From: Sulfurimonas sp. HSL3-1
GTDB lineage: Bacteria; Campylobacterota; Campylobacteria; Campylobacterales; Sulfurimonadaceae
Direction of reading: 5' to 3'
DNA length: 64,000 bases
Assembly (NCBI RefSeq): GCF_039645995.1
Contig: NZ_CP147920.1
Location: 2,356,001 to 2,420,000 of the forward strand
Both the position numbers and the translations under genes were made by a program. This document shows, in pieces, positions 1-30,722 of this stretch (the first letter of the stretch is position 1; the number at the start of each line of letters is the position of its first letter). The notes beneath the pieces were generated by a model. The model searched no databases. It had not been told where the DNA came from and saw only the letters and a program-made list of their open reading frames with translations.

Positions 1-1068
1 CGCGGCATGGATGACGATGTCGGCTCCGAAGGCCGCCATCTTCTCCTCCAGTATCCTGCCGTCGGTCACGCTGAACATCTCCAGCGAGGCCTCGGGAATC
101 GCTTCGCCGACCGTGTAGAGATTGAACTCGCTGTGGTCGATCAGGGCCAGGGCCGACGCGCCGAAACGGCGGCACTGGCGGGCGATCTCACTGCCGATGC
201 TGCCTCCCGCACCGGTGATAAGCACGCGCTTTCCTTTCACAAAACCCGCAATCACCTCCTTGTCCAGGTCTTTCGGATGACGGGCGAGGAGATCTTCGAT
301 GGAAAGATCTTCGAGTTTATCATACTGCCCTCCCAGCAGCCGCACCCGTTTGACTTCATTCACCCCGGCATCGCTCAGACGCGCGTAGAGCGCCTGGAGC
401 TCATCCTGCGCCAGGGTGCTGGTAACTATCGCCGCGGCAATCCCGCGCTCGCGGATCAGGGATTCAACTGCCTCCTCGCCGTATACGCGGATATTGCTGA
501 TATAGGTCCCGACGGCACTGCGGTTTTCCGCTGAGAGCACAACGACCGCGGAGGGGTAGTACGGGATATCCCCCTCCTGCGCACTTTTGATGATCGAAGC
601 CGTTTTGGGGTTGACGCCTAACAGCAGTACCGGTTGCTGGTGGGATGAGCGCTCCTGCTCCGTCATCAGCCGTTTGGCAACACGCAGGGCGCCGATGGCA
701 AAGATGGAGAGAAAAAAGTCGATGATGATCACACTGCGGGGAAAAGGGTCGAAGAGTGCCGGGAATAGCAGGTAAAAGCCCGTGAAAACCGTATAGGCCG
801 CCACATGGGCCTTGACAATGTTCTTGGCCTCCGCGAAGCCGACGAAACGCCAGACGATAAAGTAAATCCGAAAAAAGAAAAACGCGACGACCTTGAAGCC
901 GACCAGGTAAAGGTAGACCGTATCAAAAGATGAAAAGAACCGCAGCGGGATGTCAAAGTTGAAGCGCAGGGCGTAGGCGCCGTACAGCGTTGCCAGGGAG
1001 AGGAGCATATCCAGCAGCAGAAAGAAAAGGATCCGCTTGCCGGACGTCGGTCGCAACAGCCCGCTCAC
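1..1068 (-). CDS. pglF: PglF-type UDP-GlcNAc 4,6-dehydratase (partial, runs off left edge)
   Basis: Membrane-bound nucleotide-sugar dehydratase that turns UDP-GlcNAc into UDP-4-keto-6-deoxy-GlcNAc, the first step towards bacillosamine. The 356 visible codons stay open to the window edge, so the C-terminal part is missing. The first ~150 residues are strongly hydrophobic with several membrane segments. A Rossmann-like stretch follows, then the dinucleotide-binding motif GAGGSIGSE near residue 285, as in PglF/CapD/WbpM proteins. The GTG start at 1068 lies inside the pglE stop (GTGA overlap), so the two are translationally coupled. The family is secure; the exact sugar product is inferred from the neighbouring pglE. 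Confidence 0.88.
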   Translation of the reverse strand, partial: MSGLLRPTSGKRILFFLLLDMLLSLATLYGAYALRFNFDIPLRFFSSFDTVYLYLVGFKVVAFFFFRIYFIVWRFVGFAEAKNIVKAHVAAYTVFTGFYLLFPALFDPFPRSVIIIDFFLSIFAIGALRVAKRLMTEQERSSHQQPVLLLGVNPKTASIIKSAQEGDIPYYPSAVVVLSAENRSAVGTYISNIRVYGEEAVESLIRERGIAAAIVTSTLAQDELQALYARLSDAGVNEVKRVRLLGGQYDKLEDLSIEDLLARHPKDLDKEVIAGFVKGKRVLITGAGGSIGSEIARQCRRFGASALALIDHSEFNLYTVGEAIPEASLEMFSVTDGRILEEKMAAFGADIVIHAA

Positions 1069-2168
1069 ACCACCACCTTCCGGATGATGTCGGAGACCCT
1101 GATAACATCCTCCTGCGTCATCTGGGTGCCGCTCGGCAGGCAGAGGCCGCATGAGAACAACTGTTCACTAACACCGTCCGTCACTGCTTCGGCCCCCGAA
1201 AACAGGGGCTGAAGGTGCATCGGTTTCCAGAGGGGACGGCTCTCGATATCGTGATCTTCCAACGCGGTTCTGACCCGCTCGGGATCGGAATGACCCAGGG
1301 TCAGCGTCGTCAGCCAGCGGTTCCCCTGGGCACCCGGCAGCTCCGGCATAAAATCGATTTCGTCGATCTCCCCCAGCGCTTCTTGGTACCAGCCGAAGAT
1401 CCGGCGCCGCTGCGTCACGCGCTCGGCCAGCACCTCCATCTGCGCCACGCCGATGGCAGCTAGGACATTACTCATCCGGTAGTTGTACCCCAGCTCTTTG
1501 TGCTCGTACCATGGCGTCGGCTCTTTCGCCTGCGTCGCATAGAACATCGCCTTTGCGATCGCCTCTTCACTTTTAGAGACGAGCATCCCCCCGCCGGAGG
1601 TGGAGAGGATCTTGTTTCCGTTGAAGGAGTAGACGCCGAAGTCGCCCCAGGTGCCCGTATGGACACCATCCAAGGTCGCCCCGAGGCTCTCGGCCGCATC
1701 TTCGATCACAACGATACCGTGCTCCCGGCAGATCGCCATGATCCGCCGCATCTCCGCGCACTGGCCGTAAAGGTGGGTCACTATCAGGGCCTTCGGCGGT
1801 TTCGGTGCACGCGCTATCGCAAGCTCGAGCAACTCAGGGGAGAGATTCCAGCTCTTTGCGTCGGCATCGATGAAAAGCGGCGTCGCCTGCTGGTAAAGGA
1901 TGGCGGCAACGGAACCGATGAAGGTGAACGACGACGCCAAAACGATATCGCCCTCCCCGATACCGCTGACACGCAGCGCCAGGTGCAGCGCCGCCGTCCC
2001 GCTGGAAGTGCCCAGCGCGAACGGCGCCTGCGTGTAGTCGCAGATCGCCTGCTCGAACCGTGTCACCATCGGCCCGAGCGGCGCGATGTAGTTACTCTCG
2101 AACACTTCGGCGATGTAGCGCTGCTCGTTGCCGGTCATATGGGGAGGGGAGAGAAAAAGACGTGCCAC
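1065..2168 (-). CDS. pglE: PglE-type UDP-4-amino-sugar aminotransferase (DegT/DnrJ/EryC1)
   Basis: PLP-dependent aminotransferase that puts the 4-amino group on UDP-4-keto-6-deoxy-GlcNAc in bacillosamine synthesis. The 367 residues match the usual length. The start FLSPPHMTGNEQRYI, the GTSSGTAALHLAL cofactor-pocket motif, the LIVTHLYGQCAEM and EDAAESLGA blocks, and the PLP lysine in FNGNK are all present. By recollection of Campylobacter PglE the resemblance runs the whole length, so PglE is preferred over the related WbpE. It overlaps pglF by 4 bp and lies 2 bp after pglC. No PglD, the acetyltransferase of the next step, is in the window. Confidence 0.92.
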   Translation of the reverse strand: MARLFLSPPHMTGNEQRYIAEVFESNYIAPLGPMVTRFEQAICDYTQAPFALGTSSGTAALHLALRVSGIGEGDIVLASSFTFIGSVAAILYQQATPLFIDADAKSWNLSPELLELAIARAPKPPKALIVTHLYGQCAEMRRIMAICREHGIVVIEDAAESLGATLDGVHTGTWGDFGVYSFNGNKILSTSGGGMLVSKSEEAIAKAMFYATQAKEPTPWYEHKELGYNYRMSNVLAAIGVAQMEVLAERVTQRRRIFGWYQEALGEIDEIDFMPELPGAQGNRWLTTLTLGHSDPERVRTALEDHDIESRPLWKPMHLQPLFSGAEAVTDGVSEQLFSCGLCLPSGTQMTQEDVIRVSDIIRKVVV

Positions 2169-2170
2169 CG

Positions 2171-2782
2171 TTATCCTTTCAGCGTCTTCCAGATATACGC
2201 AAGGTCCGCTCTAAAGGACCACTGTTCGACATACATCCGGTTTATACGCACCTTGTCAGGCCATATTACCTTGTCATTATACTCCTGCGGAGACGGCTGT
2301 ACGGCCAGAATCGCCTCTTCATCACGGTATTTCAGCGTTGCAGGCCCGGTAATCCCGGGACGAACACCTAAAATCACCCGGTCCGGCCCTTCAAGCCGGT
2401 CCGCGTATCCGGCAACATCGGGACGGGGGCCCACAAAACTCATATCACCCACGAGAATATTCAGCAGCTGGGGGAGTTCATCAAGTTTGAACCGACGCAA
2501 TACGCTCCCCAACCGCGTAATACGCACATCATTGCTCGCCGTAACAGTCGTATCTACACCGCTGACGGCACGCATTGTCCTGATCTTGTAGACGGTAAAA
2601 GGACGCCCATGTCGGCCGATCCGCCGCTGCATGAACAGTCCGAACCTCCGGGTGTCGATGCTCGCCGCCGCGATCAGCAACAGGATCATCCACCACCCCA
2701 GCAGCAGCAGCCCTGTCCCCGCCAACAGGATGTCAAAGAGGCGCTTGGCAAAGGCGTCCCGCCGGGAAAGTCCCTGTGTCAT
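2171..2782 (-). CDS. pglC: PglC-type undecaprenyl-phosphate bacillosamine-1-phosphate transferase
   Basis: Initiating phosphoglycosyl transferase that moves diNAcBac-1-phosphate onto undecaprenyl phosphate at the inner membrane. It has an N-terminal hydrophobic helix (LLAGTGLLLLGWWMILLLIA) followed by QRRIGRHGRPF, YKIRTM and DELPQLLNILVGDMSFVGPRPD, the signature of the monotopic sugar transferase family. I chose the ATG at 2782 (203 residues) because its ATGA overlaps the pglB stop and the length equals that of known PglC. A start at 2809 would add nine residues inside pglB. It shares the operon with pglB upstream and pglE downstream. Confidence 0.93.
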   Translation of the reverse strand: MTQGLSRRDAFAKRLFDILLAGTGLLLLGWWMILLLIAAASIDTRRFGLFMQRRIGRHGRPFTVYKIRTMRAVSGVDTTVTASNDVRITRLGSVLRRFKLDELPQLLNILVGDMSFVGPRPDVAGYADRLEGPDRVILGVRPGITGPATLKYRDEEAILAVQPSPQEYNDKVIWPDKVRINRMYVEQWSFRADLAYIWKTLKG

Positions 2783-4887
2783 ATCTTCAGGCGGTAGATC
2801 TTGGCCCATGGAGAGAGAATGACCGGTTCATAGAGATCGGCATCGTAGTTCTCCAGGACCCCCATCTGGATAAAGAGGGACTGGTACATCTCCTCGTCAA
2901 GCACCAGGAACTTGTTCGCGCTGCGCATGAAAATGACGGAAAGCGTCCCGTCGAAATGCAGCAGATTGACCTGCTTGCCCACCGGACCGTTCTCGTGCTC
3001 TTCGGTAATAACGAAACGGCGCAGCGGAAGGCTCTGCCTACCGGCCTGCAGTACGCTCTTTTGCAAATCAAGACGCAAGCCGTTGCCGAGATCGACCAAG
3101 TTACCCGACTGTTTGGCATACCCCGTCACGTAGTAGAACGGCATCTTGTAGGACTGGCCGCTCTGCAGATCCAGGTTCGAGAACACCTTAATCGTACTGA
3201 AGATATCGAGCATCCGCAGCGGCAGGTAAAGGTAGATGTCCCGTGTAGGTTCGGGCAGCGTTACCTCTCCGACACGCAGCTGTTCGAGATACGCCTCGGT
3301 ATCGACCTGATCGGGCTGCTTGTTCCTAAAAAGGGTATCGGCGGCGACCCGATAGCCCGAATCGACATAGGTTTCCACCGCCAGGCGCGACAGCGACGCC
3401 GCCTCTTTCGGGGAATCCGTCGTCAACACCCGGGAGACGATATAGTTGTCATGACTGTGTTTTCCCCCGTCGATGAGGGTGTTCATATTGCTGTAGTACC
3501 AGATGGGATAGCCGTAATCCCACCAGGTGATGACGTAATCCCGCTCGCTACCGATGGCTTTCATCTTGTCCAGAAGTGCCACCTCCTCCTTGGTGAAGAC
3601 GGTCGGTACTTTATAGCCGATGATATGTTTGATGTTCGGGAAGAGCATCAGCCCCGTCAACAGTGCTACCGCCGCCCAGGAAGCTTTGCGATTGGGAATA
3701 TAGGAGGCCAGCACATAAAAAAGGTAAACAGCCCCGAGTGCGGCGACGGGAACAGCATAGACGGTAAAACGCAGACCGCCCCAGAGCGAAAAGACGCCGA
3801 TGCCGATCAGCGGCAACGCGAGCAGAAATGGTCTGGAACGCATCACCAGCAGCAGATAACCGATCAACGCCGCTATGACACCGGGGACAGAGCCTGAGAT
3901 CCGGTCCGCCATCACGCTGAAGGGGATCGTCCCCGCCTCCCGAACCGTCTGGCTGACCTGGTAAAAATGCAGGCCGACCTCTTCCGTGCCCCGGAACAGG
4001 TAACCCGAAACCTTGCTCCAGATCACCCCGAAAACGTTGCCGTTGATCAGGAACAGAACAAGGGTGATCCCGGCAATGACCATCAGATGGCGCAATGAGA
4101 CGGATTCGTTCTTGAACACAAAATGAGCGGCAATGAGCAACGGCACCTTGATCCACCATTGCAGCGGCATCAGGGCGATCGCGATAAGAATGATCGAATG
4201 GTAGGTGAACTTCTGATGTCGGTGGAACAGGACCATATAACCCATATAGATCAGTCCCATAGCATAGATAATAGAAAGCCCCTGATCGTACAGGAAGCGG
4301 TACAGGGCGATCGTGAACGCCGCCATCAGCGCATTGACATAGGTCTCTTTCTCAATGGTCGCCATCAAAAAATAGAGGATGAACATCGGCGCCATTGCCG
4401 AGAACATGTCAGTATCGTAGTAGCCGATCATCGTCCGGTTGTAATAGCTCCAGGCGATCGAACCGATCAGTGCCGCGAAGAAACCGAGCAGCGTCTGTCC
4501 ATAGAGGCGGCCTATCAGGATCATAGGGATCACAACAAGGCTGGAGATGACAGCAGGCATGTACAAAATGACGGTGTTGAGATCCACGGGAAAGAACTTG
4601 ACCGCCACCGTCGTCAGGAAGGTCAGTGCAAGTTCCATCCACCCGAGCACGCGCGGGTTGTCCGCATGCATTCCCTCCAGGGCCTGCTGGGCACTGCTGG
4701 CAAAATAGTAGCCGTCGTTCGTATTAATCATAAGCTGGTCTTGCCAAGAAAACGAAGGGATTCCGGAAGCCCAATCCACCCAGATCATTCGAATCGCTAT
4801 ACTAAAAGCATAGGCGATGACCATAAGGAAGATCATATTGGCAGTAGAAAGCTGTATACTCTGGGCTTCATTTTTGGACAAACTCAT
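2779..4887 (-). CDS. pglB: PglB oligosaccharyltransferase (STT3 family)
   Basis: Membrane enzyme that transfers a lipid-linked oligosaccharide onto Asn of periplasmic proteins. The 702 residues are close to Campylobacter PglB in length. An N-terminal multi-spanning part carries the first acidic site (NDGYYFA, D58) and the DxD-like YYDTDMF (D158/D160). Then follow a loop glutamate (about E317) and the arginine of GLRFTVYAVP near 372. The soluble domain has WWDYG at 455-459, DGGKHS near 473, and an MxxI motif, MLDI, at 559-562. A GAGG Shine-Dalgarno precedes the ATG. This gene points to protein N-glycosylation rather than lipopolysaccharide as the end use of the cluster. Confidence 0.96.
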   Translation of the reverse strand: MSLSKNEAQSIQLSTANMIFLMVIAYAFSIAIRMIWVDWASGIPSFSWQDQLMINTNDGYYFASSAQQALEGMHADNPRVLGWMELALTFLTTVAVKFFPVDLNTVILYMPAVISSLVVIPMILIGRLYGQTLLGFFAALIGSIAWSYYNRTMIGYYDTDMFSAMAPMFILYFLMATIEKETYVNALMAAFTIALYRFLYDQGLSIIYAMGLIYMGYMVLFHRHQKFTYHSIILIAIALMPLQWWIKVPLLIAAHFVFKNESVSLRHLMVIAGITLVLFLINGNVFGVIWSKVSGYLFRGTEEVGLHFYQVSQTVREAGTIPFSVMADRISGSVPGVIAALIGYLLLVMRSRPFLLALPLIGIGVFSLWGGLRFTVYAVPVAALGAVYLFYVLASYIPNRKASWAAVALLTGLMLFPNIKHIIGYKVPTVFTKEEVALLDKMKAIGSERDYVITWWDYGYPIWYYSNMNTLIDGGKHSHDNYIVSRVLTTDSPKEAASLSRLAVETYVDSGYRVAADTLFRNKQPDQVDTEAYLEQLRVGEVTLPEPTRDIYLYLPLRMLDIFSTIKVFSNLDLQSGQSYKMPFYYVTGYAKQSGNLVDLGNGLRLDLQKSVLQAGRQSLPLRRFVITEEHENGPVGKQVNLLHFDGTLSVIFMRSANKFLVLDEEMYQSLFIQMGVLENYDADLYEPVILSPWAKIYRLKI

Positions 4888-4889
4888 AT

Positions 4890-5726
4890 TTAACCTCGCA
4901 ATCGTTTATAGAACATTCTTTTGACCCACACCGGGGAAAGCAGTAGAAAAAAAGCGGCGACCGCATAAAGATACCCTGTGAAACCAAACCCCAATCGACG
5001 GGTCGCTTCAATTTTCAACGTAAAATCATCCTGCGCTTTTGCCCAGCCGTGTCTCCTGTAATAAAAGGCATCATTCACCCTCATTTTCACAAGCGCTACC
5101 TGGAGGTTGTGAAAACGGCATCCATGCGCAAAACCTTCTATCCACAACGCAAGATCTTCGTTCGTCGTATTTAATCGATGAAGTCCCGCCTTTTCAAAAA
5201 AAGTACGCCTGAAAAAAGCGGTGGGGTTGGCCAGCGGTGACCTTTTTTTGAAAAACTCAAAAATTTCTTCATGTGTTTCAGCGTAACGGACCACCTGTTT
5301 CTCGTCAGTGTCGGTGTTAAACTCCTCGATCCAAGCGCCAACAACATCAATTTCGGGATGGACCGACATAAAACTGTGTTGTACCGCGATCCGTTCCGGC
5401 ACGCAAATGTCGTCCGTATCCATCCGAACGATATAAACATACCCTTCTTTCAGTGCATGACTAATTAACTCGTTAAACGTGAAACTGACACCCCGATTTG
5501 TACTCCGCTCGCCGAAGTACTGGATCTGTCCACTCGCATAAAGATCGAGAAGATAATCATGCAACAAAGGAAGCACCGGGCCGTCTTCCTTGACAAAAAT
5601 ATCAAAGTCCCGCCTCGTCTGCGCAAACAGCGAAGCAAACATCGCCTTGCTTTCCTTCAGATCACTGTTGATGTAGAAGCTAAGCAAAACGACCGTATCT
5701 TGTTTCAAATGCTGTCCTCTCTGCAT
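4890..5726 (-). CDS. Family 2 glycosyltransferase
   Basis: Likely adds one sugar to the growing lipid-linked glycan on the cytoplasmic face. The protein is 278 residues with a GT-A fold: an N-terminal beta-alpha start (TVVLLSFYINSD), the acidic metal/nucleotide motif RMDTDDICVPERI, and a C-terminal hydrophobic helix followed by basic residues (FFLLLSPVWVKRMFYKR) that probably anchors it. It ends 2 bp before pglB. A TTG at 5708 has a better-spaced AGAGGA Shine-Dalgarno than the ATG at 5726, so the true start may be six codons later. A -10 box sits just upstream at 5750-5755. Donor and acceptor are unknown. Confidence 0.82.
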   Translation of the reverse strand: MQRGQHLKQDTVVLLSFYINSDLKESKAMFASLFAQTRRDFDIFVKEDGPVLPLLHDYLLDLYASGQIQYFGERSTNRGVSFTFNELISHALKEGYVYIVRMDTDDICVPERIAVQHSFMSVHPEIDVVGAWIEEFNTDTDEKQVVRYAETHEEIFEFFKKRSPLANPTAFFRRTFFEKAGLHRLNTTNEDLALWIEGFAHGCRFHNLQVALVKMRVNDAFYYRRHGWAKAQDDFTLKIEATRRLGFGFTGYLYAVAAFFLLLSPVWVKRMFYKRLRG

Positions 5727-5765: not shown

Positions 5766-6728
5766 TCAGCGCAAAAATATCTCTGGTAGATTTTGTTCAT
5801 GTCCGTTTGCCACTCTCGCTTTGAGCGCCGTCACGAGGTGCCTGGTCTCGTCATTCGTATCGGGTTCTATATGCGATGCCGCGAACTCTTGCGGCAGATC
5901 AAGACGCGGATTCACTCGAATCTGCCGCTGTTTGGCAAACGCGACAATACTGTCAACAACACGCTGCGGAGAGCGGCACAAGTCCTCATAGGTAATCCTG
6001 ATCGTATCACCCGGCAGACTTTGAGACAGAATCGATTCGTGTATGGAGACCAGCTGATCCGCTACACGCTCATACCGGCTGTTATACTCTTTTTCGCTGC
6101 AGGCTTTGGGCCGCAGGGAACTCCACTCCTCTCCGGAGATTTTTAGCAGTGAGTACGCGTTGGAAAGCAAATCTCTTGAAACATACACAAAGACAATGCG
6201 ATCGAAGTGTGCCCGCATCTGTTCCATGGAAAAGGCATGGCCGAGATAGCCTGTAATAAACGGTTCATCGGGGGAAGCCAGCATATCCAGTACCCCTTTG
6301 AGTTCCCGAAGCTTTTCGGGCTTTAACGCTCCGGCATCCTCCTGCAGTGTCTGCCCCGACCAATAAGACCAGAATTTCAACCCTTCGGCCTCCCCGCATA
6401 GTCCCGGGACAAAGCCATGGGTGGACGAGAAGCTGCTGATATGGCGTCGGCAAAGGAGTTTGGACACGACCCCGCCCAACGCCGGTGTAGCATAAAGCAG
6501 GTTCCAGATATTTGTCAAATGCGTGTTCTTCAGGGCGGTCGTCAACACCTGATATGTCAGTGTAGAACCGCTCCGCGGAGGAGCAACAATGCAGACAACC
6601 GGGATATCCCTGGGAGGGTGCAGGCGCAAAGGTAATCGGAACAGATGGTCCAACGGCGCACAGAAACGGTAAAGATCCTGAAACGTGCGTGCATATCGGA
6701 TGATAGGGCTTTCTCTACCGTAACTCAA
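5766..6728 (-). CDS. Sulfotransferase family protein (first copy)
   Basis: Predicted PAPS-dependent sulfotransferase of 320 residues. The 5'-phosphosulfate loop appears as PPRSGSTLTY at about residues 50-59, and the 3'-phosphate-binding region as IVFVYVSRDLLSNAYSLLK near 178-196. A TTG start is chosen because AGGAG lies 5 nt before it. This start overlaps the 3' end of the FemAB-like gene by 14 bp. Its position inside a glycan assembly operon suggests that it sulfates a sugar of the glycan, but the substrate cannot be read from the sequence. It is not closely similar to the second sulfotransferase at 14640-15626. Confidence 0.8.
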   Translation of the reverse strand: MSYGRESPIIRYARTFQDLYRFCAPLDHLFRLPLRLHPPRDIPVVCIVAPPRSGSTLTYQVLTTALKNTHLTNIWNLLYATPALGGVVSKLLCRRHISSFSSTHGFVPGLCGEAEGLKFWSYWSGQTLQEDAGALKPEKLRELKGVLDMLASPDEPFITGYLGHAFSMEQMRAHFDRIVFVYVSRDLLSNAYSLLKISGEEWSSLRPKACSEKEYNSRYERVADQLVSIHESILSQSLPGDTIRITYEDLCRSPQRVVDSIVAFAKQRQIRVNPRLDLPQEFAASHIEPDTNDETRHLVTALKARVANGHEQNLPEIFLR

Positions 6729-7551
6729 GACTTCTCCTGACCTCTTCGTGTTTTAATAAAACTGTCACCCTGGCGGCAAATTTATTCCGAAATGACGCGA
6801 TAATCCTACGAAACGGATAAAGCAGACGCACGGCAAGCTGTACGGACGGTCTGTAGACAACATGCATGCGGCAGTAGGCCTTTCTGAATCCGAATTTGCG
6901 GATGAGATACTGCTGGACACTGGTGTCATGTGCGAGACTGCGAGCACCGTCGTCGATATAGCGCACCTCTTTTTGATGAAGGTAGTAGTCGTTCAGCGTG
7001 TAAAAGAGTGCTTCGCTCGGATTGAGGTGGAAATAGTCCGGATCGAACCGGACGGTATCGTACTTGCAGCAACCTTCGGTGATCCGGGTAGCAGCAAACG
7101 CGATCATCATCCCCTCCGGGTCCAGAACACTCCAAAATTCCCAAAAAGGCTCTTGCATTTTACGGATCGAAGCGACGAACATTTCCCGGCTGCCGGGGCC
7201 CGCCGAGCTCCTGTACTTTTCAAAGGCTTTCACATGCACCGGCCAACCGTTTTCGGCAATATCATCGGCTCCGGTACGCCGCACCGTACAGTGCTTCAGT
7301 CCCCGTCGCACTTCGTAACGAACTTTCCGGCCGAGGGATTCAAGCGTGTCGGGTGTATCTTTGATGATGTACCAGAACGCCGTCTCTTGCCCTCTGTCAA
7401 AATCGCTTATCCAGCGTATGAAATAGGCCCCGCTCCGTTTCAGCAGTTCGCGGGCCTCTTCGCGGCTCAACGCTACCGGCACGTGCGGAGGAACATCGGG
7501 GATCAATACCTGCTGGTATAGGACCCATGTCACCCCCTTATATTCAAGCAT
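6715..7551 (-). CDS. FemAB/GNAT-like acyl- or aminoacyltransferase
   Basis: The 278-residue protein resembles the FemAB-like branch of the GNAT superfamily. It has a core with RKVRYEVRRGLKH, a later strand WEFWSVLDPEGMMIAFAATRI, and a conserved-looking end with NPSEALFYTLNDYYL, RYIDDGARSLAHDTSVQQYLIRKFGF-type sequence (substrate-site region of this fold), then a basic tail. Such proteins transfer acyl or aminoacyl groups; the donor here is unknown. GGAG sits 6 nt before the ATG. It lies 25 bp after the 2-epimerase and overlaps the sulfotransferase. Its role as a glycan-decorating enzyme is inferred from context only. Confidence 0.65.
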   Translation of the reverse strand: MLEYKGVTWVLYQQVLIPDVPPHVPVALSREEARELLKRSGAYFIRWISDFDRGQETAFWYIIKDTPDTLESLGRKVRYEVRRGLKHCTVRRTGADDIAENGWPVHVKAFEKYRSSAGPGSREMFVASIRKMQEPFWEFWSVLDPEGMMIAFAATRITEGCCKYDTVRFDPDYFHLNPSEALFYTLNDYYLHQKEVRYIDDGARSLAHDTSVQQYLIRKFGFRKAYCRMHVVYRPSVQLAVRLLYPFRRIIASFRNKFAARVTVLLKHEEVRRSLELR

Positions 7552-7576: not shown

Positions 7577-8710
7577 CTACTCTGTAGAGTCGCTGTTCGG
7601 CTTGCACTGATTTTTCAGCAATGCATCGACGATGATTCCGCTTGCGTTCCCGTTGCCGTAAAGCTCCGGTTTCCGCTCGTCAAAAAGCTGCTTGTGACGC
7701 AACATCTTTTCGGAGGCATCGATGATCGTGTTCCTGTCCGCACCCGTCAGCAGATTGAACCCATGCTCCACCAGCTCCGTCCATTCGGTTTCATCACGCA
7801 GCGTGATACAGGGTTTTTCAAAAAAGAAGGCTTCTTTTTGCAGCCCCCCGCTGTCCGTCATCACCAGCGCACAGTGCGTGAGCAGGTATACCATCTCCAG
7901 ATATCCCACCGGGTCGATGATAATAAGACGATCATGAAGAGAACGGATACCCAATGCCGTAAGCTTGGCCCTCGTCCTCGGATGAAGCGGCAGAATAAGC
8001 GGCGTTTTTTCCGCTATCGTCTGCAGCGCTTCGAAAATGGACTGCAGCCTTTCGGGGTCATCAGTATTTTCCGCCCGATGGATTGTCGTCAGAACGAAAG
8101 GGGAATCGAAATCGAATTCAATCCCCGGTTTTTCTGAGAGTGCTGCGTAGAACATGGCGGCGTCCTGCATGACATCGCCGGACCGGACGATACTTCCAAA
8201 CCCTCTCGCATCTCCCCCGAACCCTTCCGCTTGAAGGTTTGAGACCGCTGTTGCGGTCGGACAGAAAAGAAGATCGCTGATCCGGTCGGTCATGATGCGG
8301 TTGACCTCCTCGGGCATCGCCATGTTAAAGCTCCGCAAGCCCGCTTCAACGTGGGCAACCCTGATATGGAGCTTCTTGGCAGCCAGTGCCCCGGCAAGCG
8401 TACTGTTCGTATCCCCATAAACCAGCACCCAGTCCGGCTGCTCATCCAGCAGTACTTTTTCGATCTTCTCGAGCATCTGGCCCGTCATGGCACCGTGTCC
8501 CAGGCTGTGCACCTCCAGATTATAATCCGGCTTCGGAATACGCATCTGCTCAAAAAAGATATCGGACATATTGGCATCAAAATGCTGTCCCGTGTGCACA
8601 ATGACTTCTTCAATGTCGACACCATCGTTTTGCCGTTTCAGCACCTCACGACTGACCGTCGCAGCTTTGATGAATTGCGGTCTTGCACCGATAACGGTCA
8701 GAATTTTCAC
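7577..8710 (-). CDS. wbpI: WbpI-type UDP-2,3-diacetamido-glucuronate 2-epimerase
   Basis: Non-hydrolysing nucleotide-sugar 2-epimerase of 377 residues. It begins VKILTVIGARPQFIKA and contains VHTGQHFDANMSDIFF, VYGDTNSTLAGALAA, HVEAGLRSFNMAMPEE, TIHRAENTDDPERL and MTDSGGLQKEAFFFEKPC with LRDETEWTEL. The last block (KEAFFF...ETEW) fits the WbpI/WlbD branch rather than WecB, which usually has QEEAP and TTERPE. The predicted product is UDP-ManNAc(3NAc)A. The GTG at 8710 is chosen because it gives a GTGA overlap with the upstream glycosyltransferase and the normal family N-terminus. The wbpB- and wbpD-like genes in the same operon support the substrate. Confidence 0.85.
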   Translation of the reverse strand: MKILTVIGARPQFIKAATVSREVLKRQNDGVDIEEVIVHTGQHFDANMSDIFFEQMRIPKPDYNLEVHSLGHGAMTGQMLEKIEKVLLDEQPDWVLVYGDTNSTLAGALAAKKLHIRVAHVEAGLRSFNMAMPEEVNRIMTDRISDLLFCPTATAVSNLQAEGFGGDARGFGSIVRSGDVMQDAAMFYAALSEKPGIEFDFDSPFVLTTIHRAENTDDPERLQSIFEALQTIAEKTPLILPLHPRTRAKLTALGIRSLHDRLIIIDPVGYLEMVYLLTHCALVMTDSGGLQKEAFFFEKPCITLRDETEWTELVEHGFNLLTGADRNTIIDASEKMLRHKQLFDERKPELYGNGNASGIIVDALLKNQCKPNSDSTE

Positions 8711-9813
8711 GATAACAGTCCTGCGTAAATATCCATAAGTTTTGTCTCCTCTGCCGACCAATTGTACTTTGTTTCCACGGCTTCCCTGCCGTTGCGTCCC
8801 ATCCGTTCCGCTTCTTCCGGATGGGAAAGAATATACTGCATGGCGTTTGCGATCGCCGTCGGGTCGAGAGGATCGATGCAAAGCCCGCAATAGTTTTTTT
8901 CAATAATACTGCGCCAAAGAGGGAAATTCGAAGCTATCACGGGTATACCTGCGGACATATATTCAAACATTTTGTTGGGCTGTGAATCGATATGGTTGTG
9001 CGCCGGCAGGAACGTTACGACACCCGCCATCGACCTGGCCATGACGTCCCTTACCCCTTCGCGATCCAGGTAGCCGACAAAATTCACCCTCTTCCACCCC
9101 GCATACTTCTTCACCTCGGTTTCGAGAGATGCGGGGGCGAAACTCCCTGCGAGCGTCAGGATGCCGGACGGAACCGACCCCATTGCCTGAACGACCTCAT
9201 CGATCCCCCTGATTTTCGATATTCCCCCGATATAGCAGAGCTCTTGATGCTTGTGTTGCCAATCGGTGGTGTTTGCCAATTCCGAGAGAATCGGAAAATT
9301 ATTGACATCTGTCGTCCGGCTGTTTATCGCCAAAAAACGGTCCCGGATAAATGGCGTCGCCGTCATGATATGATCAAACTTGCGCACGGCAAAGTTTTCA
9401 AATCTTTCGAAGAGTGCGGAAATAAACGCCCGTTGCCAGCGCTTGAGGTAGGATTTACTGAGAATATCGCGGGGGACATCTTCATGGACGTCGTAAACAA
9501 CCTTCTTCCCTCTGCGCTTGAGCATCAAGGCGGCAGGGATCAGTTCGGGATCATGGAAATGGTAAAGCGCGGCATCTATTTCCAGGGCACGTTTATAGAC
9601 AGCGCGTACGCCTCTGGTCATGCGGGCGATCCTTCTCCCCGAAGCCTTGCCCGCATCGATAATCTCTACCCCGTGACGGACTTCGTCACCGCACCCGTCG
9701 GCAACGACCAGCGCAACATGATAGCCGGCCGCGGCCAGGCTGCTGCACTCTTTGAGAAAAATGCGGGTGTCATACCTCGGATGTACTGATGTAAGATGAC
9801 AAACCTTATGCAT
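8707..9813 (-). CDS. Family 4 glycosyltransferase
   Basis: A 368-residue GT-B enzyme, probably adding a sugar to the undecaprenyl-linked glycan in the cytoplasm. It begins MHKVCHLTSVHPRYDTRIF, then has VYDVHEDVPRDILSKSY in the N-terminal lobe. In the donor lobe it has FEYMSAGIPVIASNFP, the ExxxxxxxE-type region of GT4 enzymes. The ATG at 9813 is preferred to longer in-frame starts because AGAGGA lies just upstream and homologues start at this motif. It overlaps the preceding GT4 gene by 8 bp and wbpI by 4 bp (GTGA). Sugar specificity is unknown. Confidence 0.86.
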   Translation of the reverse strand: MHKVCHLTSVHPRYDTRIFLKECSSLAAAGYHVALVVADGCGDEVRHGVEIIDAGKASGRRIARMTRGVRAVYKRALEIDAALYHFHDPELIPAALMLKRRGKKVVYDVHEDVPRDILSKSYLKRWQRAFISALFERFENFAVRKFDHIMTATPFIRDRFLAINSRTTDVNNFPILSELANTTDWQHKHQELCYIGGISKIRGIDEVVQAMGSVPSGILTLAGSFAPASLETEVKKYAGWKRVNFVGYLDREGVRDVMARSMAGVVTFLPAHNHIDSQPNKMFEYMSAGIPVIASNFPLWRSIIEKNYCGLCIDPLDPTAIANAMQYILSHPEEAERMGRNGREAVETKYNWSAEETKLMDIYAGLLS

Positions 9814-10948
9814 AGAGTCCTCTGTAAACATCCAAGAGGACTTCTTCCTGATTTTCCCAGTTATATCTCTTTTTAAAACGATGCAGATTCTCTTTAAGCG
9901 TTTTTGGATCAAGCGATTCGGCACGACGGACCGCATCCAAAACACCTTCGGCGCTGTTTTCTTCCGCCACGACTCCGATACCGTTGTTCGTCACGAGTCT
10001 GTGCATTTCATAAAGATCGGAAACGATGACGGGGATCCCCGCCATTGTATATTCAAACAGCTTGTTCGGCGAACAGTAGTAATGGTTCAAACAAGTATTT
10101 TCATAAAAAAGGAGGCCGAAATCAGCCGATGACGTATACGTTAGAAGCACCTCGGGTTTGACGGCTTCATGGTAGTAGATATTGGCATATTGGTCGGCTG
10201 CCTCGGCGGCGGCTTTTGCCAACGGTCCGTAACCCATCATGACGAGAACACTGTTTTTGTCCTCTGTTCTTTTGAACGCCTCGATGATATGTTCAACACC
10301 GCGCCCGCTGCTCAATCCCCCCTGATAAAGAAAGATTTTTTTTCCCTTATCGATTCCGAAAGTGTTACGGAAAATATCATGCCTCTCTTCCGCCTGATAC
10401 GGGGGACAATTAAGCACGAGTGCGGGTTTCTCAACCGGGTACATTCTGGCATATTCATTCGCGATAGAATCGCTGACTGTCAAAATACGATCGGCAGCAC
10501 CGATGAAGAGTTTTTCCGTGAGTTTTGCCATCTTTTTGAGAGCGCCTTTGAAATTGTGTCGCTCCGTCTCATACTCGTGCGCATCATAGACGACTTTGGC
10601 ATCCCTCTTAAACAGCATTTTGACGACAGCTCCCACAGGAAGCGTGCCCAGATCATTGCAGTGGTAGATGTCGCCGTCCCCGTGCTCCCGGATCACCCTG
10701 TAGAGGAACTCAAGGTATTTGAATAGCTGGACTACGCGGTGTTTCGACCACCCTTTCGTCCTGAGCTTGATACGGTGGACCGGGACCCCATGGACCTCAT
10801 CCCGCTCGGGGAGACCTGCTTCATGAAGGGCGACAACCTCAACGGCATAACCGGCTTGCTGCAAAGAAACATTCTCTTTCAAAACCCTGGCATCGTTCTC
10901 AAAGCTGTTCAGTACAAGCGAAATGACCTTTTTCACCGTTGACGCCAT
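9806..10948 (-). CDS. Family 4 glycosyltransferase
   Basis: A 380-residue GT-B glycosyltransferase. The N-terminal domain starts VISLVLNSFENDARVLKEN and carries YDAHEYETERHNF. The C-terminal donor domain has FLYQGGLSSGRGVEHIIEAF and LFEYTMAGIPVIVSD. It overlaps the amidotransferase gene by 16 bp at its start. A GTG at 10936, four codons in, would form the GTGA overlap seen elsewhere in this operon and is an alternative start. It shares its overall build with the next gene (8707-9813), but they are clearly different proteins and probably add different residues. Confidence 0.85.
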   Translation of the reverse strand: MASTVKKVISLVLNSFENDARVLKENVSLQQAGYAVEVVALHEAGLPERDEVHGVPVHRIKLRTKGWSKHRVVQLFKYLEFLYRVIREHGDGDIYHCNDLGTLPVGAVVKMLFKRDAKVVYDAHEYETERHNFKGALKKMAKLTEKLFIGAADRILTVSDSIANEYARMYPVEKPALVLNCPPYQAEERHDIFRNTFGIDKGKKIFLYQGGLSSGRGVEHIIEAFKRTEDKNSVLVMMGYGPLAKAAAEAADQYANIYYHEAVKPEVLLTYTSSADFGLLFYENTCLNHYYCSPNKLFEYTMAGIPVIVSDLYEMHRLVTNNGIGVVAEENSAEGVLDAVRRAESLDPKTLKENLHRFKKRYNWENQEEVLLDVYRGLYA

Positions 10949-12066
10949 TTGGAAATGTATTGTTTAAGTCTGGAAAAACGCTGTTCAAGGGCATAGTCGG
11001 ACGGGTAATCCCGAAACGTTTTATTGGGTTGCAGCATGATGGCGTTAAGCTCCTCAACCGAGATGCTAAGCTTTTTGGCAATGAATTCTTTCTCGCTCTC
11101 TATTTCCCCTGCGTTGTAGGGAGGTTTTTCCAGCACATTCAAGGCCTCCTGCCGTGTCATCTGGCCGGCAACGATCATGCTTGACAGATGGGCTCTGCGT
11201 TTGTCGTATCCAAACTTTTCGGGCAGCCAGTAAGACTGAAAGAACTTTGTAAAGATGCTTTCATGATGTTTGTCGCCGTAATCACGCCAATCAAGCTTTT
11301 CGACAATGATCCGCTTCGCTTCCTCTTTGTCATAGGGCCAAAAATTCAGCGGTCTGATCATCTTGAATTTTTTGATATAAGGGTAATAGATCTTCCGTTT
11401 GAAGAAGCCGACAGTTTCATACGTTTTTAGCCGTATCGTTCCGAACCGTTTGTGAATGGCGAGCAGCTGCTTGGCGTCCATTGCGTTATAGCCCCAGGCA
11501 GCCGGCAGAATTGACTCTGTGGCGTAATTCCCGCCGCTGAGAAAATATCTAATGCCGAAATGATCGACAGCCACCTTGTAGAGTGTGGCGAAAAAGGCGT
11601 GGTCCTGCGGAACATCCTGGTTCGCCAGCTGAGACTTGAGATAGGCGAGTTGCAGATCTTTCATCTCCTCCCAATTGATCACTTCGGTATGAAGATCAAT
11701 CGACAGCCTCTTGACGATATGCTCTATGTTGTGTACGGCCAGCTCAGAATTCCAGCCGCCGTCAATATGAATAGCCAGAATACGAAGTTGCGGGTATTCC
11801 GTTCGAAGCATATAAGCCAGATAAGAGCTGTCTACGCCGCCGCTCAAACCGATGACGCAGTCATATTCACCGCTTTTGCCGTCTTCAATGATTCTGGCAA
11901 CAATCTGATCAAGCCTTCTTTTCCCCTCGGGATTGGGGAACCAGGATTTCCGGATCACATTTTCAACGTGCCTGCAATGGTTACAGACGCCCTGCTCGTC
12001 GAATGTGATGTCGGGGTCCGTCGTATCCATGACACAATGCGAACAGATCTGGTAATGTGTTTTCAA
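10933..12066 (-). CDS. wbpG: WbpG-type N-acetyl sugar amidotransferase
   Basis: PP-loop ATPase that, with HisH- and HisF-like partners supplying ammonia, converts an acetamido group on a UDP-sugar to an acetamidino group. The 377 residues begin with a probable zinc knuckle (CSHCVMDTTDPDITF then CNHC), followed by the PP-loop GLSGGVDSSYLAYML near residue 90. These are the marks of the family that acts in ManNAc(3NAmA)A and legionaminic-acid amidination. The TTG start at 12066 overlaps the hisF-like stop (TTGA). The order hisH-like, hisF-like, wbpG supports a three-protein complex. Confidence 0.88.
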   Translation of the reverse strand: MKTHYQICSHCVMDTTDPDITFDEQGVCNHCRHVENVIRKSWFPNPEGKRRLDQIVARIIEDGKSGEYDCVIGLSGGVDSSYLAYMLRTEYPQLRILAIHIDGGWNSELAVHNIEHIVKRLSIDLHTEVINWEEMKDLQLAYLKSQLANQDVPQDHAFFATLYKVAVDHFGIRYFLSGGNYATESILPAAWGYNAMDAKQLLAIHKRFGTIRLKTYETVGFFKRKIYYPYIKKFKMIRPLNFWPYDKEEAKRIIVEKLDWRDYGDKHHESIFTKFFQSYWLPEKFGYDKRRAHLSSMIVAGQMTRQEALNVLEKPPYNAGEIESEKEFIAKKLSISVEELNAIMLQPNKTFRDYPSDYALEQRFSRLKQYISKWRQR

Positions 12067-12833
12067 GGCTGCTCTCCAAACAATTTTTCCAACTCTTCAT
12101 ATTTCGGATAGGTGATAAGGACGGCTCTGTGTTTGCCCTGGAATACAAAAAAGCTCCCTGCTGCGACCGCGGAGGCACCGCCGAGCTCCTTTGCAGCTTT
12201 AAAATCGGACAGTTGCCCGGCGCCGCCGCAGACGATCACGGGAACGGAAATCACATCTCGGACGGTCTGAAGCAGGGTCATATCGTATCCTTTCTGCATA
12301 CCGTCCATATCCACGCTGTTAAGGAAAACCTCGCCCGCCCCGAGCGCTTCAACCTCGCGAAGATAGGCAAGCAGATCGCCCTTCTGCACTCCCTTATCTG
12401 CGTGACGGTATATCTGGTAGCGCCCCCAGAGATTTCTTTTGACATCCACCGCCACGATAATGCTTTGCGCCCCGAAGAGCTGCGAAGCTTCCCGTATGAG
12501 GTCCTTGTCGCGCAGCGCAGAACTGTTTAGAGCGACTTTTTCGATGCCGAGTGAAAAAACCTTTCTGATCTGTTCAACGTTGGTAATCCCGCCTCCGTAA
12601 CAAACCGGCATAAAACACTCGCTTGCAAAACTTTCTATCAACGCATAATCCGGCTCTCTATGCTCTTTGGAAGCGTCGATGTCGAGAAAGATCAATTCGT
12701 CCACCTCTTTCTCGTTGAAGATCCGGATAGCATTAATGGGGTCGCCGACATATTTCGGATCTTTGAATCTCACAGTTTTCACGAGCCCTTTATTGTGCAG
12801 CAACAAAACAGGTATGACTCTTGTCCGCAGCAT
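12063..12833 (-). CDS. HisF-like subunit of glycan amidotransferase
   Basis: A (beta/alpha)8-barrel protein of 256 residues related to the imidazole-glycerol-phosphate synthase cyclase (VIPVLLLHNKGLVKTV, ELIFLDIDAS, CYGGGITNVEQIRKVFSLGIEKVALN, VPVIVCGGAG). In O-antigen and flagellar glycan loci such HisF copies pass ammonia to WbpG-type enzymes instead of making histidine. No other histidine gene is nearby, and the gene sits between hisH-like and wbpG-like genes with TTGA and TGATG overlaps. The ATG at 12833 sits 8 nt after GGAG; the TTG one codon earlier is an alternative. Function is inferred from context. Confidence 0.87.
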   Translation of the reverse strand: MLRTRVIPVLLLHNKGLVKTVRFKDPKYVGDPINAIRIFNEKEVDELIFLDIDASKEHREPDYALIESFASECFMPVCYGGGITNVEQIRKVFSLGIEKVALNSSALRDKDLIREASQLFGAQSIIVAVDVKRNLWGRYQIYRHADKGVQKGDLLAYLREVEALGAGEVFLNSVDMDGMQKGYDMTLLQTVRDVISVPVIVCGGAGQLSDFKAAKELGGASAVAAGSFFVFQGKHRAVLITYPKYEELEKLFGEQP

Positions 12834-13450
12834 CAATAGTACTCCACAAAGTTCTTGAAAAGCTGCATACCGAATTTATGGCTCTTTTCGGGGTGGAACT
12901 GGCAGCCCAGAATGTTTTCATGCTCGAAACATGATACAAACTCATAGCCGTATTCGGTTGTCGTCAATATGTCGTTACGGTTTGCGCATTCTACTGCATA
13001 TGAGTGAACGAAATAAAATCGGGGATCGTCGGGCATCCCTTCGAAAAGCGGACTCTCCTTTTTCACATGCACCCTGTTCCATCCCATATGCGGCACAGGA
13101 AGTTTTTTATCATGGTCTTGAAAGTTGAAGCGTTTCGCACTCCCCTCAATAAAACCGAACCCCTCGCACTTCCCCTCTTCGCTGCCGTTCGTCAACAGCT
13201 GCATTCCGAGACAGATGCCGAGAATCGGTGTCTTATCTTCAAGCACCTTCTGTTTGATCGCTGCAATTAAGTCCAGCTGCTGAAGGTTGATCATGGCGTT
13301 GTCAAATGCGCCGACTCCCGGCAGAATTATCTTTGTGGCCTCGTTTATCGCGCGTGCATCAGAAGAGACGACGGCGCCCTCTCCGATTTTTTTCAGCATA
13401 TTTTTTACTGATCCCAAGTTTCCCATTCCATAGTCAACGATTGTTGTCAT
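12833..13450 (-). CDS. HisH-like glutamine amidotransferase subunit for glycan amidination
   Basis: Class I glutamine amidotransferase of 205 residues. It opens TTIVDYGMGNLGSVKNMLK, has the nucleophile in GICLGMQLL and the catalytic His/Glu in GCQFHPEKSH, so the glutaminase triad is complete. It releases ammonia from glutamine for channelling through the HisF-like protein. Its stop overlaps the next gene's ATG (TGATG), indicating coupled synthesis. A histidine-biosynthesis role is less likely because the adjacent wbpG-like gene has no place in that pathway. Confidence 0.88.
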   Translation of the reverse strand: MTTIVDYGMGNLGSVKNMLKKIGEGAVVSSDARAINEATKIILPGVGAFDNAMINLQQLDLIAAIKQKVLEDKTPILGICLGMQLLTNGSEEGKCEGFGFIEGSAKRFNFQDHDKKLPVPHMGWNRVHVKKESPLFEGMPDDPRFYFVHSYAVECANRNDILTTTEYGYEFVSCFEHENILGCQFHPEKSHKFGMQLFKNFVEYY

Positions 13451-14639: not shown

Positions 14640-15626
14640 CTACCTTGTTTCCTCACTGTGATGCCCACTCCAAGCGGCATAACCGAATTTATCCCGTTCA
14701 CTGGCAATAATGGGATCTATTGTACTGTTTGTGTCCGCATCGATTGCATCCCTGCCTCGCCCGATACTTTTCGTATTAATCGGCTTATACACATTGGCAT
14801 GATGCGCTCTTAGTCTCACATCCCCAAGCTCCTGTGCGGATGTTTCTGACGTCAGCATCGTCTTTTCGAAAGGAACATCCAGGAACGCACACACTCTCCT
14901 GATCTCCTTTTCGGGGTTTTCGACAAGTGTTTCATAATAAATTTCGTGGAGATTCCCAGGATATTTACTTTTAAACTTTTCAGCCATTTGAACCGATCGC
15001 ACCCATCTGCGTGCCGCATCCGTATGGTTTTTATAGATTCCTGATGCCACATAAGAGGCAACGACATCATAGGGATCCCGAACAATATGTATGAACTTTG
15101 CATCGGGGAAAACTTGAAAAAGCGGGAAGATAGCAAACGTGTTTAAAGGTGTTTTATCCCCCCATCTCGACTTGTCAATTTGATGCGTCTTGGCAAAATA
15201 CTCATAAAAGCCGTGCAGCAAGAATGCGAGCGTTCTCTGCTCCTCGGGACAACGCGAAGCGCTGTCGACAAGCGGTGCCAATGTTTTGATGTCAAACGTT
15301 TCAAATTCAGGATAAAACTCGAAATTGGAATAGATGAGCTGGACAAGATCTCCCCAGCCCATGTTGTTGTAACGGCGGAACTGCCTGATGGATTTTCCCA
15401 GGACATATGTTTCGGGCGGGATAAACAACTCGGAATGGCTGTTGAGAATACGCCTAAGAAGCGTGTTCCCCGATCTGCCGGATCCAACGATGAAAAAAGG
15501 TGCGAATCCCTCCTGCTTTTCCAGCAGATGCTTTCTTAGTGGACTCCCCATCCTGATTTTCTTATAAAAATCGATCAAAGCTTCCGGAAGATAGTGCATA
15601 AACCCCAAAACGTCAACCTTGCTCAA
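14640..15626 (-). CDS. Sulfotransferase family protein (second copy)
   Basis: Predicted PAPS-dependent sulfotransferase of 328 residues. The phosphosulfate loop is IVGSGRSGNTLLRRIL (about 46-61), and the 3'-phosphate site is FIHIVRDPYDVVASYVASG (about 177-195). The middle contains GDKTPLN, as in bacterial Sulfotransfer_3-type enzymes. It overlaps the O-acetyltransferase by 14 bp if the TTG at 15626 is used; an ATG at 15599 is a possible later start. With the copy at 5766-6728 it makes two distinct sulfotransferases in one glycan operon. Substrate unknown. Confidence 0.82.
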   Translation of the reverse strand: MSKVDVLGFMHYLPEALIDFYKKIRMGSPLRKHLLEKQEGFAPFFIVGSGRSGNTLLRRILNSHSELFIPPETYVLGKSIRQFRRYNNMGWGDLVQLIYSNFEFYPEFETFDIKTLAPLVDSASRCPEEQRTLAFLLHGFYEYFAKTHQIDKSRWGDKTPLNTFAIFPLFQVFPDAKFIHIVRDPYDVVASYVASGIYKNHTDAARRWVRSVQMAEKFKSKYPGNLHEIYYETLVENPEKEIRRVCAFLDVPFEKTMLTSETSAQELGDVRLRAHHANVYKPINTKSIGRGRDAIDADTNSTIDPIIASERDKFGYAAWSGHHSEETR

Positions 15627-29852: not shown

Positions 29853-30206
29853 GACACTCCCTTTAAAAACCTCACACGCTGCTTCTTTTGGCTCTCTATA
29901 TATAGAAGCATAGTATCGCCGGCCGTTTGCACTCCCGACAACCCTCTCGCTTTTCCAAGAAATTTCGTAAAAATCGAAAATAATGTGATAGTAATTTCAG
30001 GTTCGCGAGGAGAGATTTTCGGATAGCGAATGTAATATAACAGTTTTATCACAACTTTTATGCCGAAAAATAGGAATAAAGCCATAAAAATTAAGCTTTT
30101 ATTTTATAAAAACATTTTTAAACTAAATCGAATATTTTTCTAATTAATATTAGAAACTCTTATATTGTACTATAATGATACTTATATTTCGCATCAGGAA
30201 ATTTAC
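29841..30206. other. AT-rich intergenic region upstream of the pilus locus
   Basis: 366 bp without a convincing gene. It begins with the accC hairpin. A second inverted repeat (GCTTCT / AGAAGC around 29880-29910) follows, and the stretch ~30080-30165 is almost pure A/T. The pilus promoter lies at its right end. A 79-codon minus-strand ORF here has no supporting features. The AT-rich run may be a UP-like element or a regulator binding region. Confidence 0.5.
30171..30176 (+). promoter_or_regulatory. Pilus operon promoter -10 box (TATAAT)
   Basis: TATAAT 30 bp before the first pilin ATG, directly after the AT-rich tract. CAGGAAAT lies before the ATG as ribosome site. Confidence 0.5.
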
Positions 30207-30701: not shown

Positions 30702-30722
30702 ATCATCAAGGAGTGGGCGAGA

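What the first reader, a model, noticed from the sequence alone, without database searches (positions are those of the whole stretch)
6715..7551. FemAB/GNAT-like transferase embedded in a glycan operon
The product looks like a GNAT/FemAB-type transferase rather than a sugar enzyme, is translationally coupled to a sulfotransferase, and follows wbpI. It could attach an amino acid or acyl group to an amino sugar of the glycan, similar in principle to FemX acting on UDP-linked peptidoglycan precursors.
Basis: inference. Interest (0 to 1): 0.52.

Follow-up and report, generated by a model that had tools for sequence, protein, structure and literature searches.

The report
FemX-fold glycan acyltransferase with swappable partners
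A bacterial gene in a surface-glycan operon makes an enzyme shaped like those that hang amino acids on cell-wall precursors, and in distant bacteria it is nearly always paired or fused with a gene that would add sulfate, acetyl or methyl, suggesting an unstudied two-step way to decorate glycans.

Summary
The ORF is real: minus strand 7551-6715, 278 aa. It follows a wecB/wbpI-type epimerase and overlaps a sulfotransferase gene by 14 nt. Pfam places it just under the Acetyltransf_6 cut-off, but a confident AlphaFold2 model (pLDDT 94.5) matches S. aureus FemX best (Z 17.6, 234 residues), then streptothricin aminoacyl-tRNA-dependent synthases, other FemX entries, FemA and MprF; single GNATs match only residues ~86-237. 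The FemAB-like guess holds for the fold; donor and acceptor are unproven.

New: 24 further relatives in Campylobacterota, Desulfurellales, Flavobacteriales, Bacteroidales and Omnitrophica. In 21 of 23 readable loci the gene is adjacent or fused to a modifying enzyme: sulfotransferase (6 separate, 3 fused to one sulfotransferase class, 3 to another), small GNAT (6) or methyltransferase (3). None of 24 comparison loci without the gene carries these partners. All 23 sit beside PglC and/or PglE genes. Most likely it transfers an aminoacyl or acyl group to an amino sugar of a lipid-linked glycan, and the partner caps it.

I tested and dropped, as main reading, that it replaces PglD: 17 related loci without the gene lack PglD there too. 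New variant of a known kind.

The parts
6715..7551 (-). FemX-fold transferase ('Q'), 278 aa: partial N-terminal GNAT-like half (1-64), complete GNAT domain (~75-233), basic C-terminal helix (235-253) and last helix (257-276)
5766..6728 (-). Partner sulfotransferase (ST16 group, Sulfotransfer_3 E 5.4e-11), TTG start, 14 nt overlap with Q, AGGAG 5 nt upstream
7577..8890 (-). wecB/wbpI-type UDP-GlcNAc 2-epimerase upstream of Q (homology starts near residue 60, so the true start is probably internal)
4890..5726 (-). GT2-family glycosyltransferase after the Q-sulfotransferase pair
2779..4887 (-). PglB/STT3 oligosaccharyltransferase
2171..2809 (-). PglC-like initiating sugar-phosphate transferase, of a type whose relatives in other loci lack a neighbouring pglD
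1065..2168 (-). PglE-like aminotransferase
1..1152 (-). PglF-like 4,6-dehydratase, cut by the window edge
10933..12066 (-). WbuX N-acetyl sugar amidotransferase (292 bits, cut-off 203.2), part of the acetamidino set
12063..13450 (-). AglZ/HisF2 protein (369.2 bits, cut-off 310) and HisH-type partner of the acetamidino set

Best explanation
The gene encodes a FemX-fold acyltransferase, most likely aminoacyl-tRNA dependent, that puts an aminoacyl (or related acyl) group on the amino group of an amino sugar in the membrane-linked precursor of a Pgl-initiated glycan. The gene next to it, or fused to it, then modifies the new group: sulfation in this genome, N-acetylation or methylation in others. 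In this genome the glycan would then go to protein through PglB. Shown: gene, overlap, predicted fold, conserved partnership and fusions, partner exchange, neighbouring initiation genes. Inferred: amino sugar as acceptor, aminoacyl-tRNA as donor, partner acting on the same group, lipid-linked stage.
For: Model pLDDT 94.5, pTM 0.89. VIA-align: S. aureus FemX 6snr Z 17.6 (234 residues, 4.1 A), Sba18 9wqy 16.7, Sbb17 9wqw 16.6, W. viridescens FemX 4ii9 16.0, FemA 1lrz 15.5, MprF 7f47 15.2; Foldseek's top 17 rows are FemX, Sba18/Sbb17 and PG-synthase/MprF entries. The acyl-CoA loop [QR]xxGx[GA] occurs in 0 of 24 members. Lys219 is conserved in 23 of 23 rows with a residue there and aligns with the Lys of the NFK stretch of an XrtA-type FemAB protein in three MAFFT runs and a weak hhalign run. 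Partner adjacent or fused in 21 of 23 loci; partners in 0 of 24 Q-free loci. Fusions to two Pfam sulfotransferase classes. Partner type changes at least 11 times on the tree of 22 labelled rows. Q lies beside PglC and/or PglE in 23 of 23. Between two congeners PglB, PglC, PglE are 88, 85, 95 % identical but Q 52 and the sulfotransferase 47-48 %, as if the pair had been exchanged as a unit. In one Q-free relative an LbH acetyltransferase takes Q's slot between orthologous neighbours (60-76 % identity).
Against: No enzyme of this family has been assayed. PF02388 FemAB is not matched and PF13480 is under its cut-off; no PDB chain matches the family profile by sequence at E<=10. The first GNAT domain is only partial. 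VipF, a GNAT protein solved with acetyl-CoA, also scores Z 15.7, so acyl-CoA is not excluded by fold. The equivalence of Lys219 with FemX Lys305 rests on weak alignments. Two of 23 loci have no partner (L011, L022), so the partner is not obligatory. Eight Flavobacteriales loci carry a further sulfotransferase upstream, which may act on another sugar.
Confidence: 0.5

Rival explanations
1. It is a GNAT-type N-acyltransferase that uses acyl-CoA or acyl-ACP (acetyl, hydroxyacyl) on an amino sugar; no tRNA is involved, and the partner enzymes decorate other positions of the same glycan.
For: PF13480 is the only Pfam signal. A GNAT protein solved with acetyl-CoA (VipF) scores Z 15.7. An LbH acetyltransferase, presumably acyl-CoA dependent, fills the same slot in a relative.
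Against: The CoA-binding loop motif is found in 0 of 24 members; the best and longest structural matches are aminoacyl-tRNA enzymes.
Confidence: 0.3
2. It replaces PglD: it acylates the 4-amine of UDP-QuiNAc4N before PglC transfers it, giving a bacillosamine analogue with an aminoacyl group.
For: Q lies next to PglC/PglE in 23 of 23 loci. A NeuD/PglD-type enzyme passes its cut-off in 1 of 25 Q-bearing genomes against 78 of 151 genomes of the family. In the same genus, loci with PglD use another PglC type while PglE stays 88-90 % identical.
Against: 17 Q-free loci with the same PglC type also show no pglD-labelled gene between pglC and pglF, so PglD absence follows the PglC type, not Q. Q's slot elsewhere holds heptosyltransferase-, Stealth-, LicD- or other glycosyltransferase-like genes by inspection.
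Confidence: 0.15
3. A degenerate GNAT-fold protein without catalysis, kept as a scaffold for the sulfotransferase or other partner.
For: Fusion and overlap with partners.
Against: Eleven columns are invariant over 24 sequences and Lys219 is conserved in 23 of 23; two loci have Q without a partner.
Confidence: 0.05

Closest known systems
FemX/FemA (FemABX non-ribosomal aminoacyl transferases of peptidoglycan)
   Same: Overall fold over residues 1-245 (Z 15.5-17.6); a conserved Lys tentatively in the FemX Lys305 region (Lys305 from passages of PMC12945691); gene lies among cell-envelope glycan genes
   Different: No PF02388 match at E<=0.01 in the genome; 278 aa with a partial first GNAT half; works in a Pgl-type glycan locus with a sulfotransferase; substrates unknown
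Sba18/Sbb17, aminoacyl-tRNA-dependent peptide synthases solved with streptothrisamine
   Same: Second-best fold match, similar size (285-288 residues in the structures), full-length alignment; the acceptor streptothrisamine carries an amino sugar (recalled)
   Different: Antibiotic-type small-molecule acceptor (role recalled and from a passage on a related enzyme); no sequence match at E<=10
HfsK of the Caulobacter holdfast
   Same: GNAT/FemX-like protein in glycan biosynthesis, C-terminal extension needed for membrane association; acyl donor and acceptor unknown (passages of PMC5362036)
   Different: HfsK binds c-di-GMP and acts on the holdfast; no sulfotransferase partner is mentioned in the passages read; no sequence comparison made here
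XrtA/PEP-CTERM FemAB family (TIGR03019)
   Same: FemAB-like proteins of exopolysaccharide loci (recalled); one below-cut-off relative, L064, lies directly beside a sulfotransferase gene
   Different: Longer, different subfamily; hhalign with the Q profile only 27.6 % probability
Threonine on ManNAc3NAmA in the Methanococcus maripaludis archaellin glycan
   Same: An amino acid on the acetamidino sugar that the WbuX/HisF2 set of this locus is expected to make (passages of PMC2952790)
   Different: There threonine sits at position 6 (as I recall an amide of the sugar's carboxyl group), the reverse chemistry of FemX; only 2 of 23 Q loci (window, L024) show WbuX in the stretch printed

Membership tests
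FemABX (PF02388) | Match to the FemAB family model | tested here: not met
   only PF13480 listed for the protein at E<=1; no PF02388 match in G000 at E<=0.01
FemABX (PF02388) | FemX-type fold | tested here: met
   Predicted model only; 6snr Z 17.6 over 234 residues, five W. viridescens FemX entries Z 15.9-16.2
FemABX (PF02388) | Two complete GNAT domains | tested here: inconclusive
   one complete GNAT (about 75-233) and a smaller N-terminal half (1-64); one search aligns 1-246 with FemX 41-337
FemABX (PF02388) | Catalytic lysine (FemX Lys305) | tested here: inconclusive
   Lys219 in 23 of 23 rows, aligned with the Lys of a FemAB-like relative, but not superposed on FemX itself
FemABX (PF02388) | Aminoacyl-tRNA as donor | not testable with these tools
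   Needs an enzyme assay
Acetyl-CoA GNAT (PF13480 Acetyltransf_6) | Score over the curated cut-off | tested here: not met
   21.3 bits against 22; 3 of 23 members at E<=0.1
Acetyl-CoA GNAT (PF13480 Acetyltransf_6) | [QR]xxGx[GA] pyrophosphate-binding loop (motif recalled) | tested here: not met
   0 of 24 Q members. The motif is also rare among the partner small GNATs (1 of 7 rows), so it is not a sharp test
Sulfotransferase partner (PF13469) | Score over the curated cut-off | tested here: met
   43.6 bits against 27
PglD functional replacement | PglD missing only where Q is present | tested here: not met
   17 Q-free loci of the same PglC type show no pglD-labelled gene between pglC and pglF

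The most novel reading that the evidence does not exclude
A widespread glycan-decoration module spanning at least Campylobacterota, Bacteroidota and Omnitrophica: a FemX-fold enzyme takes an amino acid from charged tRNA and puts it on the free 4-amine of the PglE-made sugar at the start of the glycan, and an exchangeable second enzyme caps the amino acid with sulfate, acetyl or methyl. This would bring tRNA-dependent aminoacylation, and sulfation of the added amino acid, into bacterial protein N-glycosylation.
Probability: 0.15. Interest if true: 0.8.

Novelty: new variant of a known kind. Interest (0 to 1): 0.52.

Why it matters
If right, it links translation (charged tRNA) to bacterial surface or protein glycans, and gives a gene signature, a FemX-fold protein next to or fused with a sulfotransferase, small GNAT or methyltransferase, that predicts aminoacylated and capped glycans in environmental bacteria whose glycans are little studied. 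The fusions and the partner swaps make the two-step idea directly testable by mass spectrometry and in vitro assay.

Tried and rejected
PglD replacement: looked strong at first, dropped as the main reading after the control with Q-free loci of the same PglC type; kept as a rival.

'Tandem Q copies' in Flavobacteriales were a clustering error of mine: the 264-268 aa neighbours are sulfotransferases joined to Q by the fusion proteins; corrected.

Sequence routes to FemX: the family profile finds no PDB chain at E<=10 (the earlier 5-row profile gave only weak unrelated hits); a FemAB-like protein of a Q-bearing genome gave none of use. Superposition of Lys219 on FemX Lys305 was not possible because no coordinates are given.

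Plasmids hold no relative at E<=1e-3. Papers: searches of the open PMC library listed no paper that I recognised as describing a FemAB-sulfotransferase pairing in glycan loci (0 papers hold FemAB, sulfotransferase and exopolysaccharide); most subscription papers are not in that library. Papers seen: passages only of PMC2952790, PMC4336324 (AglU and AglZ do not occur in it), PMC5362036 and PMC12945691; all others as search listings.

Rows dropped before counts: L017, L019, L013 (same genomes as L011, L012, L034); L021 and L031 (contig ends after Q) for partner counts; L037, L038 (fragments; L038 runs from Q sequence into a flippase-like protein, probably chimeric); L028 from alignments and tree because of undetermined bases. 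E-value limits differ between searches (1e-3 for Q; 1e-10, 1e-5, 1e-30 for partners). Partner searches in genomes: sulfotransferase orthologues in 2 of 397 (both with Q; two more weak hits at 26-27 % identity in genomes without a Q match), small GNAT in 1 of 151 (with Q), methyltransferase in 1 of 80 (with Q).

Full report
The gene. The ORF at 6715-7551 lies on the minus strand, 278 aa. It sits in a long minus-strand operon: UDP-sugar dehydrogenase, Gfo/Idh-type oxidoreductase and LbH acetyltransferase genes, a sulfotransferase, HisH/HisF2/WbuX acetamidino genes, glycosyltransferases, a wecB/wbpI-type epimerase, then this gene, a second sulfotransferase, a GT2 glycosyltransferase, PglB, PglC, PglE and PglF. 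The sulfotransferase ORF starts with TTG so that the genes overlap by 14 nt, with AGGAG 5 nt before the TTG. The genome is 2.5 Mb, one contig. Genomes G069 and G490, of the same family and the same order, have contigs of the same length and place as records named Sulfuricurvum and Sulfurovum, so I take the organism for a campylobacterotan; it is not named by any search.

Fold. Pfam gives only Acetyltransf_6 at 21.3 bits against a cut-off of 22, and just 3 of 23 relatives reach E 0.1. An AlphaFold2 model on 23 family sequences has mean pLDDT 94.5 and pTM 0.89. The closest solved structures are S. aureus FemX (Z 17.6, 234 residues aligned, 4.1 A), Sba18/Sbb17 aminoacyl-tRNA-dependent peptide synthases (16.1-16.7), W. 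viridescens FemX (15.9-16.2), FemA (15.5) and MprF/PG synthases (14.1-15.2). VipF, solved with acetyl-CoA, reaches 15.7. Single-domain GNATs stay at 14.2 or less and cover about 86-237. Rows within 1 Z are tied. The usual CoA-loop motif is in 0 of 24 members, though it is also rare among the partner GNATs, 1 of 7 rows. Lys219 is present in 23 of 23 rows and aligns with the Lys of an NFK stretch of an XrtA-type FemAB protein; FemX uses Lys305 (passages of PMC12945691). That equivalence is tentative. The C-terminal helix 234-252 is basic (mean net charge +3.3 over 23 rows) and moderately amphipathic, which would suit a membrane-bound acceptor; in HfsK a C-terminal extension is needed for membrane association (passages of PMC5362036).

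Distribution. A match was found in 4 of 151 genomes of the family and 4 of 397 of the phylum, the window's own included, and in 25 loci of the single genome-contig scan: Sulfurovum, Sulfurimonas, Sulfuricurvum, Desulfurellales, Flavobacteriales (with Polaribacter and Cryomorphaceae), Bacteroidales and an Omnitrophica. Merging duplicates and leaving out two fragments gives 25 distinct loci with the window.

Partners. In 23 of these the partner position is readable. Partner: ST16-type sulfotransferase in 6 (window, G027, L020, L023, L027, L033); fused sulfotransferase of the Sulfotransfer_3 class in 3 (L015, L025, L028); fused sulfotransferase of the Sulfotransfer_1 class in 3 (L029, L030, L032); small GNAT in 6 (L014, L018, L026, L034, L035, L036); methyltransferase in 3 (L012, L024, and upstream in L016); none in 2 (L011, L022) (Pfam was run on 2 of 3 fusions of each class, the third of each was placed by BLAST). 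Eight Flavobacteriales loci have a further sulfotransferase upstream, directly adjacent or with one gene between. A tblastn of the partner proteins against 24 Q-free loci from the phylum found none at E 1e-6; these 24 were chosen around PglC and PglD genes, not at random, and some are short. On a tree of 22 labelled rows the partner type changes at least 11 times for 6 types, 8 when all sulfotransferases count as one type. So the partner is swapped repeatedly, yet nearly always present.

Module exchange. Between this genome and its congener G027, PglB, PglC and PglE are 88, 85 and 95 % identical, but the Q protein 52 % and the sulfotransferase 47-48 %. Between L011 (with Q) and L040 (without) the neighbours are 60-76 % identical and Q's slot holds an LbH acetyltransferase. 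In other Q-free loci the slot, judged by reading the sequences, holds heptosyltransferase-, Stealth-, LicD- or other glycosyltransferase-like genes. The slot is a variable decoration site.

Initiation genes. PglC and/or PglE follow in all 23 loci; PglB is seen in 7 of 23, all campylobacterotan. A NeuD/PglD-type acetyltransferase passes its cut-off in 1 of 25 Q-bearing genomes, with a second one just under it, and in 78 of 151 family genomes. This suggested that Q replaces PglD. The control speaks against it: 17 Q-free loci with the same PglC type also show no pglD-labelled gene between pglC and pglF (L043, L052, L061 and L062 are short or incomplete there). In the same genus two Q-free genomes (G010, G036) have another PglC type (34-36 % identity to this one), with PglD, and a PglE 88-90 % identical. 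The likely meaning is that this PglC type takes the sugar with a free 4-amine, which is one possible acceptor for Q, but that is not shown.

Mechanism. The fold, the partners and the fusions fit a two-step decoration: Q attaches an aminoacyl or acyl group to an amine of the precursor, and the partner modifies that group. Sulfation, acetylation and methylation can all act on a free amine or hydroxyl of such a group (general chemistry). This reading is inferred. The main rival is an acyl-CoA GNAT acting independently of the partner.

Wider pairing. Two further FemAB-like genes of other subfamilies in two Q-bearing genomes (L063, L064) also lie next to sulfotransferase genes. The pairing may be wider than this family; no background rate was measured.

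Verdict. A new variant of a known kind: a FemX-like enzyme in a glycan locus with exchangeable partners. Interest 0.52; no activity has been shown.

Noticed in passing
window 1-4887: PglB-PglC-PglE-PglF block without pglD. This PglC type is found in 18 of 397 phylum genomes at E<=1e-55, and no Q-free locus with it shows pglD between pglC and pglF, while PglD-bearing loci use a PglC only 33-36 % identical. It may use the unacetylated 4-amino sugar.
   Followed up: partly
L063 1129-2986 and L064 1105-2983: FemAB-like genes of other subfamilies (PF02388 hit; TIGR03019-like) each directly beside a sulfotransferase gene, in genomes that also hold the Q family; L064 also has a polysaccharide-deacetylase-like gene (by eye) next to it.
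   Followed up: partly
window 14640-15626: Another, higher-scoring sulfotransferase gene (Sulfotransfer_3 E 1.6e-37) in the same operon.
   Followed up: no
window 10933-13450: Acetamidino set WbuX, HisH, AglZ/HisF2, as for ManNAc3NAmA-type sugars; no second aminotransferase (WbpE) was labelled in the operon stretch.
   Followed up: no
L058 8623-9018: wbpI-like gene reduced to about its first 90 conserved residues, with no Q before the next glycosyltransferase gene; looks like a deletion, not proven.
   Followed up: partly
L038 3-1367: Frame that begins as the Q protein and continues into a flippase-like membrane protein; probably a chimeric contig.
   Followed up: no
window 30165-34157: Genes resembling a spore-coat-U/chaperone-usher pilus set (small secreted protein, chaperone-like, 764-aa usher-like, second small protein); judged by eye only.
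   Followed up: no
L022, PglC+PglE frame of 573 aa: PglC-like and PglE-like domains in one frame in a Polaribacter locus.
   Followed up: no
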